The notes beneath the pieces were generated by a model. The model had not been told where the DNA came from and did no database searches. It worked only from the letters and a program-made list of their open reading frames with translations. Source: Gemmatimonadota bacterium (GTDB taxonomy: Bacteria > Gemmatimonadota > Gemmatimonadetes > Gemmatimonadales > Gemmatimonadaceae). Taken from it: a DNA stretch of 64,000 nucleotides. The stretch spans positions 1 to 64,000 of the forward strand of contig VHBO01000006.1 in the NCBI GenBank assembly GCA_016871895.1, given 5' to 3'. Below, piece after piece: positions 41,746-51,328 of the stretch (within the stretch, counting starts at the first letter, position 1; each line of letters opens with the position of its first letter). A program made the translations under genes and the position numbers.

Positions 41746-42443
41746 CGCGCCGTCCTCGCCGCTTCTTCGCTGCCGGCGCCGTCGTATTGGTCGTCGCGCT
41801 CGGCGTGGCCGCCCGCCCGATCGGTTCTGGTGCGGTGCCGCGCCTCGCCGTCGCGCGGCTCCAATACGATGGTGACGATTGGTATGCGAACCCTTCGAGT
41901 CTGCCGAACCTCATCCGCGCGATCCGCGAACGCACCGCGCTCGCGATCGAGCCGCGGGAGGTGCGGGTCACGCTCCTCGACGACCGGCTCTTCGATGTGC
42001 CGTTCTTGCACCTCACCGGGCACGGGAACCTGACGCTGAGTGACGCCGAGGTCGTGCGGCTGCGGGAGTATCTCCTCCGCGGGGGGTTCCTGCACGCCGA
42101 CGACAACTACGGGCTCGACGCGGCCTTCCGTCGAGAACTCGCGAAAGTCTTTCCCGACCGCCCGCTCGTCGACGTCCCGCTCTCGCACCCGATCTACCGG
42201 ATCGTCTATCCGTTCCCGGAGGGGGTCCCGAAGATCCACGAGCACGACGGGCAGCCGGCGCGCGGGTATGGCCTCTTCATCGGGGATCGACTCGCTGTGT
42301 ACTACTCTCACGAGGCCGACCTCGGGAACGGATGGGAGGACGTCGGGACCTATGCGGACGATCCGCCTGAGGCGCACGAGGCGGCGCTGCGGATGGGAGT
42401 GAATCTTTTCGTGTATGCCGTGACGAGCGGGGTGGGGCGATGA
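41742..42443 (+). CDS. DUF4159 protein
   Basis: 233 residues with an N-terminal signal anchor (FFAAGAVVLVVALGVAA). The mature part (LAVARLQYDGDDWYANP, then LREYLLRGGFLHADDNYG and LSHPIYRIVYPF) fits DUF4159. This family has a class-I glutamine-amidotransferase-like fold without an obvious nucleophile and usually sits with MoxR/DUF58/BatA-type or DUF4175 genes. Here MoxR and DUF58 are absent and DUF4175 follows with a 4-nt overlap. Function unknown. Confidence 0.82.
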   Translation: MTRRPRRFFAAGAVVLVVALGVAARPIGSGAVPRLAVARLQYDGDDWYANPSSLPNLIRAIRERTALAIEPREVRVTLLDDRLFDVPFLHLTGHGNLTLSDAEVVRLREYLLRGGFLHADDNYGLDAAFRRELAKVFPDRPLVDVPLSHPIYRIVYPFPEGVPKIHEHDGQPARGYGLFIGDRLAVYYSHEADLGNGWEDVGTYADDPPEAHEAALRMGVNLFVYAVTSGVGR

Positions 42444-45400
42444 GGATCGTCGCGCTCGTCGCCGACGAATCTGCCCGGCTCCGTCGGCTCGCCGCTGCGA
42501 CCACGCTGGCGTGGCCCGCGGCGGTGGGCGTCGCCCTGCTCGCCGCGGGCGCGTTCGCGCTCGCCGACGGACGCTGGCTCACGGTGTCCCCGCTCTGGCC
42601 CTTCGCGGTCTGGGGGGGTGCACTGCTGGCGTGCGTCGGTGGGTGGCGTCTGCTGCGCCGGCGCGTCGGCGCAGCGTCGGCCGCGGCGCGGGTCGCGATG
42701 GCGATCGAAGCGGAGCAGGGGCAGCGACGCGGTTCGGTCGAAGGATTCCTCGAAGTCGCCCCGCTCGGCGGCGCGCTCGTCTCGCACGCCGACGCGCGCC
42801 TCGCGGCGGGGCTGCGCGCGGTCGCCGATGCGCCGGCGCCGCGGCATCGGCGCGCCGCGTGGCAGCGCGGCGGTGCCGGCGTCGTGGTGTTGCTGGGGAT
42901 GCTCGGCCTCGCCGGGCTCACGTCGCCGGCGACGGCGGACGGCTGGCGCGCGCTCGCCCATCCGGTGCGCGCCTGGCGTGGCACGCTCGTGGCGCCTCTC
43001 GCCGTGGAGGGACTCCCGTCCCGCGTCGTCCGCGGCGGGACGCTCGACGTCCGGCTCGCCGCACCGGGGCGCCGCGCGATCCGGCTGCGCTGGCGGCAGA
43101 CCGGCGGTGCGTGGCGCGATTCCGCGGTCGTCGTGACCGCCGGCCACGCCGCGGTGCGGGTGGGGCCGATCGACGCGGACCTCGTGCTCCTCGCGACCGA
43201 CGGGCGTGCGACGACGGACACGCTCCGCACCCGGATCGCCGATCGTCCGTTCCTCGGCGAGGTCGTCGTGCAGGCGATCTATCCCGCGTATCTCGGGCGC
43301 GCCGCCGAGCGGCTCGCCATCGATGCGCCGATCGCGGTGCCGGAGGGGACGCAGCTCCGGCTCGAGGGGCAGGCGTCGGAGCCGCTGTCGTCGGTGCAAC
43401 TCGTCTCCGCCGCCGGTGCGCGGGTCGCGCTGACGGTTCGTGGCGTCGCCTTCACCGGAGGCTTCCGGCCGTCGGGACTCGACGCGTGGCGCTGGGAGGC
43501 GCGGGGCTCTGCCGGGCCGATCGAGGATGTGCCGACGCCGCTCGAGATCGAGGTCGTCGCGGATGCCGCCCCGCGGGTGGAGATCGTCGAGCCCACGGGC
43601 GAGCCGAAGGTCGGGCCCGAGGATCGGGTCGGCATCGAGATCGTCGCCCAGGATGACCAGCAGCTGCGCGGGGTCTGGCTGCGACGCACGGTGTTCTCGC
43701 CGAGCGGCGATTCCACCGATGTCACGGAGTATCGGTTGAGTGACGCGCGGGAGTCGGAGTGGGTCGGCGGCGCGGTGCAGGCGTTGGCCGACCTCGCGCT
43801 CGCGCCCGGGTCGGCGGTGCGATTCGAAGCCGTGGCGCGGGATGCGGTCCCCGGCCGACCGGAGACGGTGAGCGCACCGTTGCTGCTCCGCATCCCGACG
43901 GCGGCTGAGGAGCGCGCTGCCGCACGCGACGTGGGGGATGCGGCCGCGGCCGCGGCGCGCGCGGCGGCACAGGCGCAGGCACAGCTCGCCGAACGCACCG
44001 CCACCGAGGCACGCACGCGGTCGGATCGTCCCGCCGCACCGACGGAGGCGTCACCGACGCGCCCGGGCGCGACCCCGCCCGCCGCGAACGCCGCGACGCC
44101 GATGCGCTACGATGGCGCGGAGCGCGCGCGCGAGATCGCGGCGCAGCAGCGGGCGATGCAGGACCGGGTGAGTGGGCTCGAGGAGACCGCCCGCGAGATG
44201 GAGGATCGCCTGCGCGAGGCGGGGGCGCTCGACACGTCGCTCGCCCGGCAGCTGCAGGATGCGCAGCGCCTCCTGCGCGAGGCGATGACCCCTGAGCTCG
44301 CGGAGGCGCTCCGGCGCGTGGAGCAATCGGCGAACGACCTGAACGCGGAGCGCACGCGGCAGTCGCTCGCGGATCTCGCCGCGCAGCAGCAGCGGATGCG
44401 GGAGGCGCTCGAGAAGAGCGCGGAGATGCTCCGGCGCGCGGCGCTCGAGGGGGCGATGAAGACGACGGCTGATCAGGCGCGCGACCTCGCGCAGGCGCAG
44501 CGCGCCTTCGCGGACAGCGCGCGCCGACGCCCGCCGGAGGCGCGCGAGGCCGAGGCGCTCGCGCGGCAATCGCGGGAGCTCGCGGAGACGATGGCGGCGC
44601 TCCAGGAGCGGCTCGCGCAGTCGCGGGCGCGCACCGGTGCGTCGCAGACCGAGCGGGCGTCGGCCGAGGCGCGTCGGTCGGAGTCGGCGCTGCAGGAGGC
44701 GATGCGACAGGCGCGTGAGGCGGCGGCGGGCGCGCGTCCCGCGTCGCGGGACTCCGCGCGGCGCGATGCACAGGACGCGGCGGCACAGGCCGCGCAGGCG
44801 ATGGCCGAGGCGGCCGCGGCGATGCAGCAGGCGCGCGCCGGCCAGGTCGCGGAGTGGAAGGGCGAGCTGACGCAGGCGCTCGATCGCTCGGTGCAGGAGA
44901 TGATGCAGCTCGCGCAGGAACAGGACGCGCTCGCCCGCGACGCCCAGCAGAATCCGTCGGATCCCTCGCTCCGAGGGCGCCAGTCGGCGTTGCAGCAGGG
45001 GATGCAGACCGCCCAACGCCGGCTCGCCGAGCAGGGGAAGCAGAGTGCACTCCTCTCCGCGCGCAGCGAGCAGATGGTGCAGCAGGCACAGCAGCAGGTG
45101 AGCGAGGCCACGCGCGACGCCGCACAGTCGGCGTCGGGCCAGTCGGCGCAGTCGATGCAGGAGGCGGCCGACGCGCTCCGGCAGGCGGCGGCGCAGCTCA
45201 CGCGGGACCGCGACCGCGCCGCGTCCGCGCAGTCGGCGTCGGGGGTCCCGGAGATGCTCGAGCAGCTGCAGCAGCTCGCCCAGCAGCAGGGGCAGCTGAA
45301 CGGGCAGATGCAGAGCCTCCTCGGTGGCGCACAGGCGCGCGGGTCGCAGGGCGTGGATGCCGCGGCGCGGGAACGGGCGCGCGAACTCGCGCGCTCGCAA

Positions 45401-45790
45401 CGGGAGGTCGCGCGCGCGCTCGATCAGGTCGCTGACGCTGATCCCACTGGGCGGGCGCAGGAGATGGCGCGCGAGGCGCGCGTGCTCGCGCAGGCGCTCG
45501 ATCAGGGGATCGCCGACCCCGCCACGCAGGCGCGTCAGGAACGGCTCTTCCGCCGGATGCTCGATGCGGGACGCGCCCTCGAACAGGACCAGCAGGACGA
45601 GGCGCAGCGTCGGGAATCCCGGGCCGCGCGTGGGACGGCCCGCTTCACCCCGGCCGATGGACCGCAGCGGGGCGCGGCGGCAGAGCGCTATCAGCTGCCG
45701 ACGTGGGAGGAACTGCGCGGGATGAGCGCCGAGGAGCGCCGCCTCGTGCTCGAGTACTTCCGCGCCCTGAACGCGGGGAAGGTGCCGTGA
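42440..45790 (+). CDS. DUF4175-like protein: membrane-anchored with a long Gln/Ala-rich coiled coil
   Basis: 1116 residues. Two membrane segments lie near residues 18-60 (AWPAAVGVALLAAGAFALA, LWPFAVWGGALLACVGG) and one near 140-160. A periplasmic beta-rich region of about 350 residues follows (TPLEIEVVADAAPRVEIVEP). Then come about 550 residues of continuous helix rich in Gln, Ala, Glu and Arg (QEQDALARDAQQNP, AQQQGQLNGQMQSLLGG), predicted coiled coil. The C-terminus ends YQLPTWEELRGMSAEERRLVLEYF. The layout matches DUF4175. Overlaps of 4 nt on both sides imply stoichiometric expression with the DUF4159 and TPR proteins. Confidence 0.8.
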   Translation: MRIVALVADESARLRRLAAATTLAWPAAVGVALLAAGAFALADGRWLTVSPLWPFAVWGGALLACVGGWRLLRRRVGAASAAARVAMAIEAEQGQRRGSVEGFLEVAPLGGALVSHADARLAAGLRAVADAPAPRHRRAAWQRGGAGVVVLLGMLGLAGLTSPATADGWRALAHPVRAWRGTLVAPLAVEGLPSRVVRGGTLDVRLAAPGRRAIRLRWRQTGGAWRDSAVVVTAGHAAVRVGPIDADLVLLATDGRATTDTLRTRIADRPFLGEVVVQAIYPAYLGRAAERLAIDAPIAVPEGTQLRLEGQASEPLSSVQLVSAAGARVALTVRGVAFTGGFRPSGLDAWRWEARGSAGPIEDVPTPLEIEVVADAAPRVEIVEPTGEPKVGPEDRVGIEIVAQDDQQLRGVWLRRTVFSPSGDSTDVTEYRLSDARESEWVGGAVQALADLALAPGSAVRFEAVARDAVPGRPETVSAPLLLRIPTAAEERAAARDVGDAAAAAARAAAQAQAQLAERTATEARTRSDRPAAPTEASPTRPGATPPAANAATPMRYDGAERAREIAAQQRAMQDRVSGLEETAREMEDRLREAGALDTSLARQLQDAQRLLREAMTPELAEALRRVEQSANDLNAERTRQSLADLAAQQQRMREALEKSAEMLRRAALEGAMKTTADQARDLAQAQRAFADSARRRPPEAREAEALARQSRELAETMAALQERLAQSRARTGASQTERASAEARRSESALQEAMRQAREAAAGARPASRDSARRDAQDAAAQAAQAMAEAAAAMQQARAGQVAEWKGELTQALDRSVQEMMQLAQEQDALARDAQQNPSDPSLRGRQSALQQGMQTAQRRLAEQGKQSALLSARSEQMVQQAQQQVSEATRDAAQSASGQSAQSMQEAADALRQAAAQLTRDRDRAASAQSASGVPEMLEQLQQLAQQQGQLNGQMQSLLGGAQARGSQGVDAAARERARELARSQREVARALDQVADADPTGRAQEMAREARVLAQALDQGIADPATQARQERLFRRMLDAGRALEQDQQDEAQRRESRAARGTARFTPADGPQRGAAAERYQLPTWEELRGMSAEERRLVLEYFRALNAGKVP

Positions 45791-47502
45791 GGGGTCTGCT
45801 TGGGTGGCTGCTCCTCGGCGGCGCGCTCGCGGCGCAGGAGGCCGCGCCCGCGGGTGCCGCGGCGCTCAGCCGCGGACTCGACGCGGAGAACGGGAACCGA
45901 GCGCGCGAGGCCGTCACCGCGTATCGCGAGGCGATCGCCGCTGGCGCGGTGGTGCAGGGGGTCCTCGGGCTCGAGCGCGTGTTCTCGCTGACGATGCAGG
46001 AGGACTCCGTGCTCGCGGCGCTCGACACGCTGTTGCCGCGCTTCCCCGGCGAGAGCGCGCTCCGAGGGGTGCAGCTCCGTGCCCTCGTCTCCCTCGGTCG
46101 GCCGCGCGCGGCCGACGCCGCGTTCCGGGCGTGGTGTGCGACGCGTCCGAGCGACCTGGCCCCGTACCGCGATTACGCGCGGATCCTCCTCTTCAACAAC
46201 CGCGCCGCCGCGGTGGACACCGTGTTGCGCGACGCCGCGACGGCACTCGGCTCGCTCCAGGGGCTGGCGCTCGAACTCGCGCAGATGCGCGCCGGGCTCG
46301 GTCGTTGGGAGGAGTCGGCGCTCGCCTGGCGCACCGTCGTGCAGGATGAGGCGTATTACGAATCGGCGGCGGTCTTCTCGCTGACGCCCGCTCCGGTCGG
46401 GGCCCGCGATGCCGTGCGGGCCGCGCTGATGACGGGACGCGGCACGGCGTCGAGTGCGACGGCCGCCGCGTCCCCGCCGACGATCGGTGTGCGACAGGTG
46501 CGGGCGCTTCTGGATGTGGCGTGGGGCTCGCCGCGCGACGGCTGGACGGTCCTCGCCGCCGTCCCCGTGACGGATACCGCGGTCGTGGTTTGGCGGCAGT
46601 TCGGGGAGGAGGTCGAGCGCGCGCAGGCGTGGGGGGTCGCCCGTGATGTCTGGGCCGCGGTGCATCGCGCCCGTCCTGAGGCGTCGGACGCGTGGCGCGG
46701 GGCGCAGGCGGCGCTCCGGGCCGGCGATGCGACCGGAGCGCTGACCCTCGTCCGCGGAGCGGGCGTGGGGGATTCCACGACGCGGGTCGATGTGGCGGTG
46801 CCGCTCGAGCTCGAGGCGCTCGCGCGGCTCGGGCGCGGCGCCGAGGTGACGGCTCGGCTCGCCGCCGAATCGGCGGCGCTGGGCCCGGACCGCGTGCGGT
46901 TGATGCAGCGCGTGGTCGCCTGGGCCTGGATCCGCGCGGGGGATGTGCCGCGCGCCCGTGCGGCGCTCGCCGGCGCGACGCTCGACGCGGAGGACGAGGT
47001 GGCCGGCTGGCTCGCGCTGTACGAGGGGGATCTCGTGGCGGCGCGACAGGCACTGCGCCACGTGCCGACGCCGGAGCAGGACGTCGTGCGCGCCCTCGCC
47101 CTGCTGAACCGGACGACCGTCCCCCGTGCGCCCGCCGTCGGCGCCGCCTTCCTCGCCCTCGGGCGTGCCGACACCACCGACGCGGTCCGCCGCTTCGAGT
47201 CGGCCGCTGCCGACCTCCCCGATGCGGCGCCGGTGCTCCTCGCGATGGCGGCCCGCCTCGAGACGGGGCGTGGGGCCGACGCGCGGGCGCGTCGTCTCTG
47301 GCAACGCGTCGCCGTGGAGCACGCGGCGGCACCCGAGGCGGCGGAGGCGCACCTCGAATGGGCCCGTGGGCTCCGGCGCGCCGGGGACGGCGACGGCGCC
47401 CGCGAACATCTCGAGCATCTCATCCTCACCTATCCCGGGAGCGCGCTCGTGCCGCAGGCCCGCCGCGAACTCGACGCCCTCCGCCCGGGGGTGGCCGCGT
47501 GA
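45787..47502 (+). CDS. exported TPR-repeat protein of the DUF4159/DUF4175 operon
   Basis: 571 residues from a GTG overlapping the DUF4175 stop. Signal peptide RGLLGWLLLGGALAAQE. The rest is helical repeats: ALSRGLDAENGNRAREAVTA near residue 30, YRDYARILLFNNRAAAV near 125, and AHLEWARGLRRAGDGDGARE near 540, about ten TPR-like units in all. No enzymatic motif. Likely a periplasmic scaffold for its operon partners. The next gene overlaps by 4 nt. Confidence 0.72.
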   Translation: MRGLLGWLLLGGALAAQEAAPAGAAALSRGLDAENGNRAREAVTAYREAIAAGAVVQGVLGLERVFSLTMQEDSVLAALDTLLPRFPGESALRGVQLRALVSLGRPRAADAAFRAWCATRPSDLAPYRDYARILLFNNRAAAVDTVLRDAATALGSLQGLALELAQMRAGLGRWEESALAWRTVVQDEAYYESAAVFSLTPAPVGARDAVRAALMTGRGTASSATAAASPPTIGVRQVRALLDVAWGSPRDGWTVLAAVPVTDTAVVVWRQFGEEVERAQAWGVARDVWAAVHRARPEASDAWRGAQAALRAGDATGALTLVRGAGVGDSTTRVDVAVPLELEALARLGRGAEVTARLAAESAALGPDRVRLMQRVVAWAWIRAGDVPRARAALAGATLDAEDEVAGWLALYEGDLVAARQALRHVPTPEQDVVRALALLNRTTVPRAPAVGAAFLALGRADTTDAVRRFESAAADLPDAAPVLLAMAARLETGRGADARARRLWQRVAVEHAAAPEAAEAHLEWARGLRRAGDGDGAREHLEHLILTYPGSALVPQARRELDALRPGVAA

Positions 47503-48755
47503 TCCTCCGTGTCCTGCTGATCGGACTGCTGCTCGTCGGACGAGCGGTGGGCGCCCAGCATCTCCTCCTCCCGATGGACGAGGCGCAGGCGAATCATCTG
47601 AAGGCGTATGGCGTCGTCTTCGGGGCGCTCGTCGACAACGTGCGCAGCGAATGGTTGATCAACTATCGCGGCGGCGCGTTCCTCGTGCCGGATCTGCCGA
47701 GCGTGCGCCGGGCGGCTGCGCTCGCGGGGGTGACGAGCGAACCCGTCGACGCTGGCACCCTCGCGACGATGCGGCGGGAGATCGCCGAGGGGAACATGGA
47801 CGCCGTGCCGCTCGAGCGCGCGCCGCGGATCGCCGTGTACACGCCGCCGGATGCGCCGCCGTGGGATGACGCGGTGACGCTCGCGCTGAGCTACGCGGGG
47901 ATCAAGTACGCGAAGATCTGGGACGACACGGTGCTCGCCACCGACCTCGCGCAGTTCGACTGGATCCATCTCTTCCACGAGGACTTCACGGGGCAGCAGA
48001 ACAAGCTGCACCTCGGGTTCCGCGATGCGCCCTGGTTCGTACAGGCACGCGAGCGCGACCTCGCGATGGCGCGCGGCCACGGGCTCGCCGACATCCCGAC
48101 GCTCAAGAAGGCGGTCGCGGAGAAGCTGCGCGCCTTCGTCGAGCGCGGCGGCTTCCTCTTCGCGATGTGCGGCGCCACCGAGACCCTCGAGCTCGCGCTC
48201 GCCGCGGCCGGGATCGACATCGCCGGGCCGTATGCCGACGGCTCCCCCCTCGATCCCGCGGCCGATGCCAAGCTCGCCTGGGACCGGAGCTTCGCCTTCC
48301 AGGGCGCACGACTAGAGTTCGCGCCCGGGATCAACGCGATGAGTGACATCGACGGGCATCAGGTGAATGTCCCCGCGCGTCGGCAGCCCCTCGGCACCTT
48401 CTCGCTCTTCGGCTTCTCGGCGAAGTTCGATCCCGTGCCGACGATGCTCGTGCAGAACCATCGCGCGGTGATGCCCGACTTCTACGGCGTGACCACCTCC
48501 TTCACGCGACGCACCCTCAAGCCCGGGGCGACGGTGCTCGCGCAGGAGGAGGGGGCGCCCTGGGTGAAGTATCTCCACGGGTCGTATGGTCGTGGCTCCT
48601 GGACCTACCTCGGCGGGCACGATCCCGAGGATCCGCAGCACAACATCGGGGCGCCACCGACCGACCTCGCGCTGCATCCCAACTCGCCCGGCTACCGGCT
48701 GATCCTGAACAACGTCCTCTTCCCGGCCGCGAAGAAGAAGACGCTCAAGACGTGA
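47499..48755 (+). CDS. exported protein of the 'asparagine synthetase B'-labelled family (probably not AsnB)
   Basis: 418 residues. Signal peptide ILRVLLIGLLLVGRAVGAQ, then LLLPMDEAQANHLKAYGVVF, WLINYRGGAFLVPDLPS, RIAVYTPPDAPPWDDAVTLA, WIHLFHEDFTGQQNK and FVERGGFLFAMCGATETLEL. From memory, homologues in Bacteroidota are database-labelled asparagine synthetase B, but there is no N-terminal Cys2 nucleophile and no AsnB ATP-pyrophosphatase motif. The sequence instead suggests a glutamine-amidotransferase-like alpha/beta domain with a cysteine in AMCGAT (ThuA/GATase1-like). A periplasmic hydrolase or binding protein is inferred. Overlaps both neighbours by 4 nt. Confidence 0.72.
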   Translation: MILRVLLIGLLLVGRAVGAQHLLLPMDEAQANHLKAYGVVFGALVDNVRSEWLINYRGGAFLVPDLPSVRRAAALAGVTSEPVDAGTLATMRREIAEGNMDAVPLERAPRIAVYTPPDAPPWDDAVTLALSYAGIKYAKIWDDTVLATDLAQFDWIHLFHEDFTGQQNKLHLGFRDAPWFVQARERDLAMARGHGLADIPTLKKAVAEKLRAFVERGGFLFAMCGATETLELALAAAGIDIAGPYADGSPLDPAADAKLAWDRSFAFQGARLEFAPGINAMSDIDGHQVNVPARRQPLGTFSLFGFSAKFDPVPTMLVQNHRAVMPDFYGVTTSFTRRTLKPGATVLAQEEGAPWVKYLHGSYGRGSWTYLGGHDPEDPQHNIGAPPTDLALHPNSPGYRLILNNVLFPAAKKKTLKT

Positions 48756-51328
48756 GCGCGCGCGACGAGGCGGAGACGGAGGGGCCGGCGCCGTCGGGCA
48801 CGCGTGCGGCTGGCGGCGCAGGGCACGGCGAGCCCGGACGGATCGCGCCCGGCGCGGCCGCCGCGGTGCGGACGGCGATCCGTCTCGCCGGCGGGCGTGA
48901 GGTCTGCTTCGTCTGCACCATCGACGAGGCCGGGCTCGTGGTCAGCGCCCGCGTGGCGGCGCGCGGCGATGTGTCGAGCGTCCTCGCGCTGCCGGGCTTC
49001 GCGAACCGGGGCGAACTCCTGCTGCATAACCATCCGAGCGGATGGCTCGAGCCGTCGGACGCGGATCTCGCCGTGGCGGCGCGTCTGCACGACGACGGAA
49101 TCGGATTCGCGATCGTCGACAACGAGGCGAGTCGGCTGTACGTGGTGGTCGAGGTCCCACGCGCGCGCCCCGCGGCGACGATCGCGCCGGACGATATCGC
49201 CGGGCTACTCGGGCCCGACGGACCCGTCGCGCGACGGTTGGGCCGCTACGAGGACCGCCCGAGCCAGCGTGAGATGGCGCGGCTCATCTCGTCCCTCTTC
49301 TCGCGCGGTGGGGTCGGGCTGATCGAGGCGGGGACCGGCGTCGGCAAGTCGCTCGGCTACCTCGTCCCCGCGCTCCGCTGGGCCGCCGAGAGTGGCGAGC
49401 GCACCGTCGTCAGCACCAACACGATCACGCTGCAGGAGCAGCTGACGGGGAAGGACCTCCCCTTCCTCGCCGAGGCGCTCACGGACCAGAAGGTGCGCTT
49501 CGCGCTGCTGAAGGGATGGCGGAACTACCTCTGCCTGCAGCGCCTCGAGCAAGCGCGGGCGCAGGGGCCGGCACTCTTCGACGACGCCGCCTCAGTGGAA
49601 CTCGCGGCGATCGAGGCGTGGGCGGAGAAGACCACCGACGGCTCACTCGCCGATCTCCCCGACCCGCCGCGTGGCGAGGTGTGGGATGAGGTCGCGGCGG
49701 AAGGGGACCTCTGCACGCGCCTCCGCTGTCCGCACTTCGAGCGCTGTTTCGTCTTCACCGCGCGGCGCGCCGCGGCGCAGGCGGACGTGATCGTCGTGAA
49801 TCATCACCTGCTGATGGCCGACCTCGCCGTGCGGCGTGCGTCGCAGCGCTGGGACGAGGCGGCGGTGCTACCGGCGTTCAAGCGTCTGGTGATCGACGAG
49901 GGGCACCACCTCGAGGATGCCGCAGCGTCGCACCTCGGGCAGGAAGTCTCACGGCGATCGCTCGAGCGGCTCTTCAATCGCCTCGACCGCCGCGGGAAGG
50001 GACTCCTCCCCGCACTCGAGCGGGCCCTGTCGAAGGGGACCGACCTCCTGAGCGTCGCGAGCCTCGACCTGTTGCGGGCGCGACTCGCGCCCTCCCTGCA
50101 CACGTCGCGCGTGAAGGCCGCGGCGCTCTGCGATCTCCTCGCCGGGTGGCTCGCGGTGCGGGACGAGCCGCAGGTGCGGCTCACGGATGCCTTCGCCGAC
50201 GACGCGATCTGGGGGGACGGCCTGGGCGTGGCGCTCGACGACCTGCTCGCGGAGATCGACCTCCTCGGCGACGGACTCCGGATGGTGCGAGAGCGCCTCG
50301 AGAGCGATGAGCGGCGCGCCGAGGAGCTCGCGCCGTTGCTCAACGAAGTGCGCGGGGTCACGCGTCGCCTCGCCGGCGCGGGCGACGCGTTGCGGGCGGC
50401 GCTACGGCCCGACCGCGACGGGCTGCCGCGCGTGCGCTGGCTCGAGCGTCGCGGTGGGGAGGGGAACGTCGGCGCCACCGCGGTGCCGCTCGATCTCGCG
50501 CCGGTGTTGCGCGAAGACCTCTTCCGTCGGGTCGAGACGGCGGTGGTGACCAGCGCGACCCTCGCCGTCGGTGATGGCTTCGACTTCCTCACGAAGCGCC
50601 TCGGCCTCGACGATCCCGAGCTCGAGCCGGTGACCGCGACCCTCGCCTCGCCGTTCTCGTATCCGACGCAGGCGGTCCTCGCCATCCCGAGCGACTTCCC
50701 GGCACCGAACCTCGATGGCTCCGCGCACTTCGCGCGCACGCTGAGCGCCGCGGAGGATCTCATCGCGTTCGCGGGCGGAGGCGTCTTCCTCCTCTTCACG
50801 AGCCATCGGGACGTGCGCGAGGCGGCGCGGGTGCTGCGGGAGCGTGGGGTGGCGGGGGCGCATCCACTCCTCGTCCACGGGGAGGCCCCGCGGGATGACC
50901 TCCTGCGGCGCTTCCGTGCGCACGGGGATGCGGTGCTCGTGGGCACCGCGAGCTTCTGGGAGGGGGTCGACATCCCGGGCCGCGCGCTGCGCGGGCTCGT
51001 GCTCGCACGCATCCCGTTCCGCGTCCCCACCGAGCCGGTGACCGCGGCGCAGTGCGAGGCGATCGAAGCCGAGGGGCGGAGCGCCTTCGACGAGTACATG
51101 ATCCCCCACGCCGCGCTGCGGCTGAAACAGGGATTCGGCCGGCTCATCCGCACCGCGGACGACCGGGGCGTCGTGGTGATCTGCGACCCGCGCGTCGTCA
51201 CCAAGGGGTACGGCCGTCGCCTCCTCCAAGGGCTCCCCCCGGCCGCCCGACTGCAGGGGCCGTGGGCCCTCCTGCGTGACGGGCTTCGGGCGTTCTACGC
51301 CGGGACCGAACCCCCGTCCCGCGGGTAG
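48752..51328 (+). CDS. dinG: JAMM-domain/DinG-type helicase fusion
   Basis: 858 residues. Residues about 35-150 carry HNHPSGWLEPSDAD: H92-x-H94-x7-S102-x2-D105, the JAMM metalloenzyme motif as in RadC-like proteins. From residue about 165 a DinG/XPD-type superfamily 2 helicase begins: Walker A AGTGVGKSLGY near 193, four iron-sulfur-type cysteines (NYLCLQR, then GDLCTRLRCPHFERCF), DEGHH near 382, VTSATLAVGDGFDF, and QGFGRLIRTADDRGVV near 793. DinG unwinds 5'-to-3' and removes R-loops or damaged forks. Usual DinG N-termini lack the JAMM part, so this is a composite. It follows the AsnB-like gene with a 4-nt overlap. Confidence 0.85.
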   Translation: MSARDEAETEGPAPSGTRAAGGAGHGEPGRIAPGAAAAVRTAIRLAGGREVCFVCTIDEAGLVVSARVAARGDVSSVLALPGFANRGELLLHNHPSGWLEPSDADLAVAARLHDDGIGFAIVDNEASRLYVVVEVPRARPAATIAPDDIAGLLGPDGPVARRLGRYEDRPSQREMARLISSLFSRGGVGLIEAGTGVGKSLGYLVPALRWAAESGERTVVSTNTITLQEQLTGKDLPFLAEALTDQKVRFALLKGWRNYLCLQRLEQARAQGPALFDDAASVELAAIEAWAEKTTDGSLADLPDPPRGEVWDEVAAEGDLCTRLRCPHFERCFVFTARRAAAQADVIVVNHHLLMADLAVRRASQRWDEAAVLPAFKRLVIDEGHHLEDAAASHLGQEVSRRSLERLFNRLDRRGKGLLPALERALSKGTDLLSVASLDLLRARLAPSLHTSRVKAAALCDLLAGWLAVRDEPQVRLTDAFADDAIWGDGLGVALDDLLAEIDLLGDGLRMVRERLESDERRAEELAPLLNEVRGVTRRLAGAGDALRAALRPDRDGLPRVRWLERRGGEGNVGATAVPLDLAPVLREDLFRRVETAVVTSATLAVGDGFDFLTKRLGLDDPELEPVTATLASPFSYPTQAVLAIPSDFPAPNLDGSAHFARTLSAAEDLIAFAGGGVFLLFTSHRDVREAARVLRERGVAGAHPLLVHGEAPRDDLLRRFRAHGDAVLVGTASFWEGVDIPGRALRGLVLARIPFRVPTEPVTAAQCEAIEAEGRSAFDEYMIPHAALRLKQGFGRLIRTADDRGVVVICDPRVVTKGYGRRLLQGLPPAARLQGPWALLRDGLRAFYAGTEPPSRG

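What the first reader, a model, noticed from the sequence alone, without database searches (positions are those of the whole stretch)
48752..51328. JAMM (RadC/MPN-like) domain fused to a DinG helicase
HNHPSGWLEPSDAD (H92, H94, S102, D105) is a complete JAMM metal site upstream of an intact iron-sulfur DinG helicase. A deubiquitinase/RadC-like active site joined to an R-loop/fork helicase in one chain suggests a repair enzyme that unwinds and also cleaves a protein or nucleic-acid adduct.
Basis: partly seen in the sequence, partly recalled or inferred. Interest (0 to 1): 0.75.

Follow-up and report, generated by a model that had tools for sequence, protein, structure and literature searches.

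The report
RadC-type JAMM domain on YoaA/DinG helicase
This bacterium's only DinG-type DNA-repair helicase carries an intact zinc-hydrolase (RadC/JAMM) domain at its front end; the arrangement has been published but never tested, and here it is shown to be old, widespread in one bacterial phylum and under selection to stay active.

Summary
The architecture is not new. It is the 'RadC-like DinG' subgroup of Cheng 2025 (PMC11981726), and RadC-DinG/RAD3 fusions were noted earlier by Aravind's group (PMC5512222).

New here: the protein occurs in 125 of 150 sampled genomes of the window's phylum (Gemmatimonadota by named relatives). All five JAMM residues are intact in 110 of 123 copies read, and within the genus the domain is as constrained as the helicase (pN/pS 0.22 against 0.20-0.26). 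Nine copies lack the domain, three keep it with a dead motif; the tree implies at least four decay events. So the site is conserved in most lineages but dispensable for the helicase. It is the only such helicase in this genome, which also has a separate RadC and no HolC.

By sequence the domain belongs with RadC rather than deubiquitinases. Most likely it is a metal hydrolase acting on nucleic-acid ends exposed by the helicase; adduct peptidase is the main rival. I found no biochemical test of its substrate.

The parts
48752..51328 (+). Whole gene: JAB(RadC-like)-YoaA/DinG helicase, 858 aa, GTG start overlapping the stop of the upstream gene (GTGA)
48839..49156 (+). JAB/JAMM (RadC-clade) domain, residues about 30-135
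   Evidence: Pfam RadC PF04002; AF2 model pLDDT 88, best folds RadC 2qlc and Rpn11/CSN5/JAMM
48899..48901 (+). E50, JAMM catalytic glutamate (start of first strand of the JAB core)
   Evidence: aligned with the RadC Glu by hhalign; invariant in A1
49025..49033 (+). H92-N93-H94, metal-binding histidines
49055..49066 (+). S102 and D105 of the JAMM motif
49157..49246 (+). Linker, residues 136-165, fast evolving apart from an LGPxGPxA element that stays with the helicase when the JAB domain is lost
49247..51301 (+). YoaA/DinG-type SF2 Fe-S helicase core, residues 166-850
49331..49351 (+). Walker A GTGVGKS (194-200)
   Evidence: nearly invariant in A2
49532..49534 (+). C261, first Fe-S cysteine
   Evidence: invariant in A2
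49712..49747 (+). C321, C326, C332, the other three Fe-S cysteines
   Evidence: invariant in A2 and in all 204 sequences
49895..49906 (+). Walker B DEGH (382-385)

Best explanation
It is a chromosomal, vertically inherited 'RadC-like DinG': a YoaA-type ATP-driven Fe-S helicase with an apparently catalytically competent RadC-clade JAMM metal hydrolase in the N-terminal slot where other DinG subgroups carry an exo- or endonuclease. Proposed working: the helicase loads on single-stranded DNA at a stalled or damaged fork or 3' end and unwinds it; the tethered JAMM site (zinc held by H92, H94 and D105, water activated by E50) hydrolyses a bond in the exposed nucleic-acid end or a blocked nucleotide, so that unwinding and end-cleaning are coupled. 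Shown here: domains, intact motif, fold prediction, selection, distribution, repeated loss. Inferred: zinc binding, catalysis, and a nucleic-acid substrate.
For: Domain and motif calls. Predicted JAB/MPN+ fold. E50/H92/H94/S102/D105 invariant in 52-member A1; intact in 110/123 copies. Within-genus pN/pS of the JAB domain 0.22, equal to the helicase 0.20-0.26, flanking linkers 0.54-0.63. Helicase motifs and four Fe-S cysteines conserved. Conserved chromosomal neighbours in 44-52 of 53 named loci. RadC-clade membership, and published arguments that RadC JABs lack the ubiquitin-tail groove and occupy nuclease positions in fusions with DinG/RAD3 helicases. ExoDinG and EndoDinG have nucleases in the same N-terminal position.
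Against: I found no demonstrated biochemical activity for any RadC-clade JAB; the JAMM enzymes of known activity in the literature read here act on ubiquitin-like substrates. E. coli radC mutants have normal damage sensitivity (quoted). Positional equivalence is a weak argument. Nine sampled copies keep the helicase without the domain.
Confidence: 0.42

Rival explanations
1. The JAMM domain is a peptidase that removes protein from DNA, with the helicase translocating into a DNA-protein crosslink and unfolding it: a single-chain counterpart of FANCJ (an XPD-family Fe-S helicase) handing an unfolded adduct to the SPRTN metalloprotease.
For: Best structural neighbours include JAMM peptidases Rpn11, CSN5, PfJAMM1, AfJAMM. 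FANCJ translocating into and unfolding a crosslink so that SPRTN can cut it is demonstrated (citing Yaneva 2023).
Against: JAMM peptidases cut (iso)peptide bonds after ubiquitin-like proteins, not general proteins; the domain groups with RadC by sequence, for which loss of the ubiquitin-tail groove is published; none of the neighbouring genes searched matches a ubiquitin-like or E1/E2 family.
Confidence: 0.25
2. The domain's main role is non-catalytic: a docking or regulatory module (for example replacing HolC recruitment), with the active site incidental or lost.
For: Dead motifs in L124, L125, L127 and probably Fusobacterium L134 while the domain is kept; no HolC found in the genome, so a different recruitment would be needed.
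Against: All five catalytic residues are intact in 110/123 copies and invariant in A1, which scaffolding alone would not require; f5 lineages with a dead site or lost domain (L119, L124/125, L127) have longer helicase branches, as expected if function is relaxed.
Confidence: 0.22
3. Ordinary domain shuffling without functional coupling; the JAMM residues persist only by short time or chance.
For: Nine domain-less copies show that the helicase can do without it.
Against: Phylum-wide conservation at down to about 43-50% whole-protein identity with an intact motif, and pN/pS equal to the helicase.
Confidence: 0.04

Closest known systems
RadC-like DinG subgroup (Cheng 2025, PMC11981726, Desulfuromonas soudanensis model)
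   Same: N-terminal RadC-like JAMM domain with conserved E, H, H, D; YoaA-like helicase; no HolC in the genome
   Different: Mainly the taxon; Gemmatimonadota is not named in the main text and the supplementary table could not be read. Cheng reports high conservation; domain loss and dead copies are added here.
RadC/JAB fused to DinG/RAD3-like helicases noted by Aravind's group (PMC5512222, its ref. 46)
   Same: Same pair of domains; nuclease hypothesis proposed there
   Different: That paper concerns mobile-element polyvalent proteins; this gene is chromosomal with conserved neighbours
E. coli YoaA (with HolC)
   Same: Closest helicase family model (562 bits)
   Different: YoaA has no JAB domain and works with HolC, not found here
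ExoDinG (SaDinG) and EndoDinG
   Same: Extra enzyme domain in the N-terminal slot of a DinG-type helicase
   Different: Exonuclease or endonuclease instead of JAMM
Stand-alone RadC (own genome, contig C20)
   Same: HNHPSG-x3-PS-x2-D motif, upstream Glu, shared R-G after the second strand
   Different: 142 bits to Pfam RadC against 23-31 for the fused domain; no helicase

Membership tests
RadC-like DinG (Cheng 2025) | N-terminal RadC-like domain on a DinG-type helicase | tested here: met
RadC-like DinG (Cheng 2025) | Conserved E, H, H, D catalytic set | tested here: met
   E50, H92, H94, D105
RadC-like DinG (Cheng 2025) | YoaA-like helicase, HolC absent from the genome | tested here: met
   YoaA model best; no DNA_pol3_chi hit in a 96%-complete genome
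RadC-like DinG (Cheng 2025) | C-terminal alpha7 helix of MD2 as in YoaA | tested here: inconclusive
   A predicted C-terminal helix 838-850 is present but was not superposed on YoaA
YoaA (NCBIfam NF053712 equivalog) | Score over the curated cut-off of 680 bits | tested here: not met
   562.3 bits
YoaA | Co-occurring HolC | tested here: not met
DinG/XPD Fe-S helicases | Walker A/B, Helicase_C_2 and four Fe-S cysteines | tested here: met
Stand-alone RadC (NCBIfam NF000642/TIGR00608) | Score over cut-off (180 / 133.85 bits) | tested here: not met
   25.7 and 23 bits for the N-terminal domain; the Pfam RadC domain cut-off is met
JAMM/MPN+ metallohydrolase fold | E...HxHx7SxxD on a JAB/MPN fold | tested here: met
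JAMM deubiquitinases | Cleavage of ubiquitin-like isopeptides | not testable with these tools
   needs biochemistry
Metal-dependent nuclease | Metal-dependent cleavage of nucleic acid | not testable with these tools
   needs biochemistry

The most novel reading that the evidence does not exclude
A single polypeptide that couples an XPD-family helicase to a JAMM hydrolase to clear blocked DNA ends or DNA-protein crosslinks, making it the first RadC-clade protein with an assignable catalytic function and a bacterial one-chain analogue of FANCJ plus SPRTN.
Probability: 0.2. Interest if true: 0.75.

Novelty: new member of a known kind. Interest (0 to 1): 0.36.

Why it matters
RadC is a widespread bacterial protein whose function is unsettled. 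A RadC-clade active site fixed to a helicase of a family with known DNA substrates, and repeatedly lost or inactivated in sister lineages, gives a natural experiment and a purifiable enzyme for finding out what RadC-type JAMM domains cleave.

Tried and rejected
E88 as the catalytic glutamate: rejected, it varies (E in 151 of 204, otherwise mostly G, Q, D, S) while E50 is kept in 185 of 204. Mobile or phage origin: no phage or plasmid record covers 80% or more of the query, and among the rows listed only a Fusobacterium chromosome-sized record reaches the JAB region, with a dead-looking domain; the one viral-contig relative matches from residue 169 only. JAB unfused elsewhere in genomes whose DinG lost it: only ordinary RadC found. 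RadC substituting for, or decaying with, the fused JAB: all three dead-JAB genomes also lack RadC, but six f5 genomes lack RadC with an intact JAB and all nine domain-less genomes keep RadC, so no clear pattern. Rate acceleration of the helicase after loss: clear in family f5 (L119, L124/125, L127), mild or absent in f1. Conserved neighbours as functional clues: no informative family for the upstream gene. Geometry of the JAB site relative to the DNA path was not measured because model coordinates are not returned. Significance of the RadC association was not computed, as the genomes are not independent.

Full report
Observation. The frame at 48752-51328 (+) is open for 858 aa and starts at a GTG that overlaps the upstream stop codon. 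Pfam finds a RadC-like JAB domain above its cut-off and Helicase_C_2 at 3e-42. NCBIfam places the helicase nearest YoaA (562 bits, under the 680 cut-off) and then DinG. The nearest solved helicase by sequence is DinG 6fwr. Walker A, Walker B and the four Fe-S cysteines (C261, C321, C326, C332) are conserved in a 40-sequence alignment. The first 29 residues are variable and of very low model confidence, so the exact start is uncertain.

Is the JAMM site complete? Profile-profile alignment with the phylum's own RadC proteins (probability 96.9%, E 1.5e-10) puts E50 on the RadC glutamate stretch and shows a shared R-G after the second strand. E50, H92, H94, S102 and D105 are invariant in 52 aligned domains. 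The motif pattern occurs once in the six-frame window and in 22 of 20,000 shuffled proteins.

Structure. AlphaFold2 on the domain gave mean pLDDT 88, pTM 0.75. Foldseek ranks RadC 2qlc first (E 6e-5), followed by COP9, Rpn11 and archaeal JAMM proteins. VIA-align gives Rpn11 Z 9.4 (rmsd 3.0 over 102 residues) and RadC Z 8.2 (3.3 over 96). These Z values are only moderately above the tool's stated noise level, so the fold call rests on the sequence match and the motif together. The full-length model has pTM 0.78.

Distribution. The whole protein matches in 125 of 150 genomes of the window's phylum. Nearly all named loci are Gemmatimonadota; two, L059 and L066, bear other MAG labels at 64-66% identity and are probably mis-binned. 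Of 123 copies read from the 150-genome draw, 110 have all five residues, 9 lack the JAB domain, 3 keep a JAB with a dead motif and 1 is cut by a contig end. Twenty-four of 150 genomes have no Helicase_C_2 match at the E-value limit used. In the window's own genome this is the only Helicase_C_2 protein, a true RadC sits elsewhere, and no HolC was found.

Selection and loss. Among 13 close relatives, median pN/pS is 0.22 for the JAB domain, 0.20, 0.26 and 0.22 for three parts of the helicase, and 0.63 and 0.54 for the flanking linkers. The domain is therefore maintained as tightly as the motor. A FastTree phylogeny of the helicase region places the domain-less and dead-site copies in at least four separate places: L115-L117; L099/L112/L113/L114; L118; L119 with L124/L125; and L127. 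Support for some internal nodes is low, so the count holds only under this tree. In family f5 the affected lineages have longer helicase branches than intact sisters (0.94 against 0.43, 1.42 against 0.43, 0.35 against 0.17), but in f1 the difference is small or absent.

Fusobacterium. A Fusobacterium vincentii DinG-type protein carries an N-terminal region aligned from residue 48, reading RTTKPKQLYPSDME where the motif would be. The JAB profile matches it weakly but end to end (12 bits, E 1e-4 in a small set). It is probably a dead relic, not proven.

Context. The same genes flank the locus in 44-52 of 53 named loci with enough sequence: three upstream genes of unknown or TPR type, a fumarylacetoacetate-hydrolase-family gene, and gltX on the other strand. 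This is a stable chromosomal site, not a mobile element. The neighbours give no clue to function.

Prior knowledge. Cheng 2025 defines 'RadC-like DinG', reports the conserved E, H, H, D, models zinc there, notes that the rest resembles YoaA, that HolC is absent and that no research on it existed. [quoted passage not shown] The finding is thus a member of a described, unstudied class.

Mechanism. I favour a metal hydrolase acting on nucleic-acid ends exposed by the helicase (0.42), because the domain is RadC-clade, sits where ExoDinG and EndoDinG carry nucleases, and is catalytically conserved. A purely structural role (0.22) fits the dead-site lineages but not the general conservation. I found no biochemical test of any of these.

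RadC association. All three dead-site genomes also lack stand-alone RadC, while 134 of 150 genomes have it. Six other f5 genomes lack RadC with an intact fused JAB, the three are small genomes representing about two events, and domain-less lineages keep RadC. I record it as an unexplained, weak association.

Noticed in passing
G122, G110, G132 (loci L124, L125, L127): The three genomes whose fused JAB has a dead JAMM motif also lack any stand-alone RadC; small genomes (1.8-2.0 Mb), about two independent events.
   Followed up: partly
L134, 3926-6394: Fusobacterium vincentii DinG-type helicase with an N-terminal region that looks like a JAB domain without metal ligands; the record is labelled a plasmid but is 2.1 Mb and probably a chromosome.
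   Followed up: partly
window 47490-48755 (+): A 421-aa protein frame directly upstream, overlapping the helicase start, has no Pfam, NCBIfam or PDB match yet is conserved beside JAB-DinG in 52 of 53 loci.
   Followed up: partly
window 42440-45790 (+): 1116-aa protein rich in Ala, Gln and Arg, probably with a long coiled coil, no Pfam or NCBIfam match, conserved upstream in 49 of 53 loci.
   Followed up: no
G042 and other family f7 genomes; genus g13: Several Gemmatimonadota lineages gave no clear DinG/XPD-type helicase match at all.
   Followed up: no
L059, L066: MAG contigs labelled Phycisphaerales and Candidatus Kuenenia carry genes 64-66% identical to the Gemmatimonadota protein and are probably mis-binned.
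   Followed up: no
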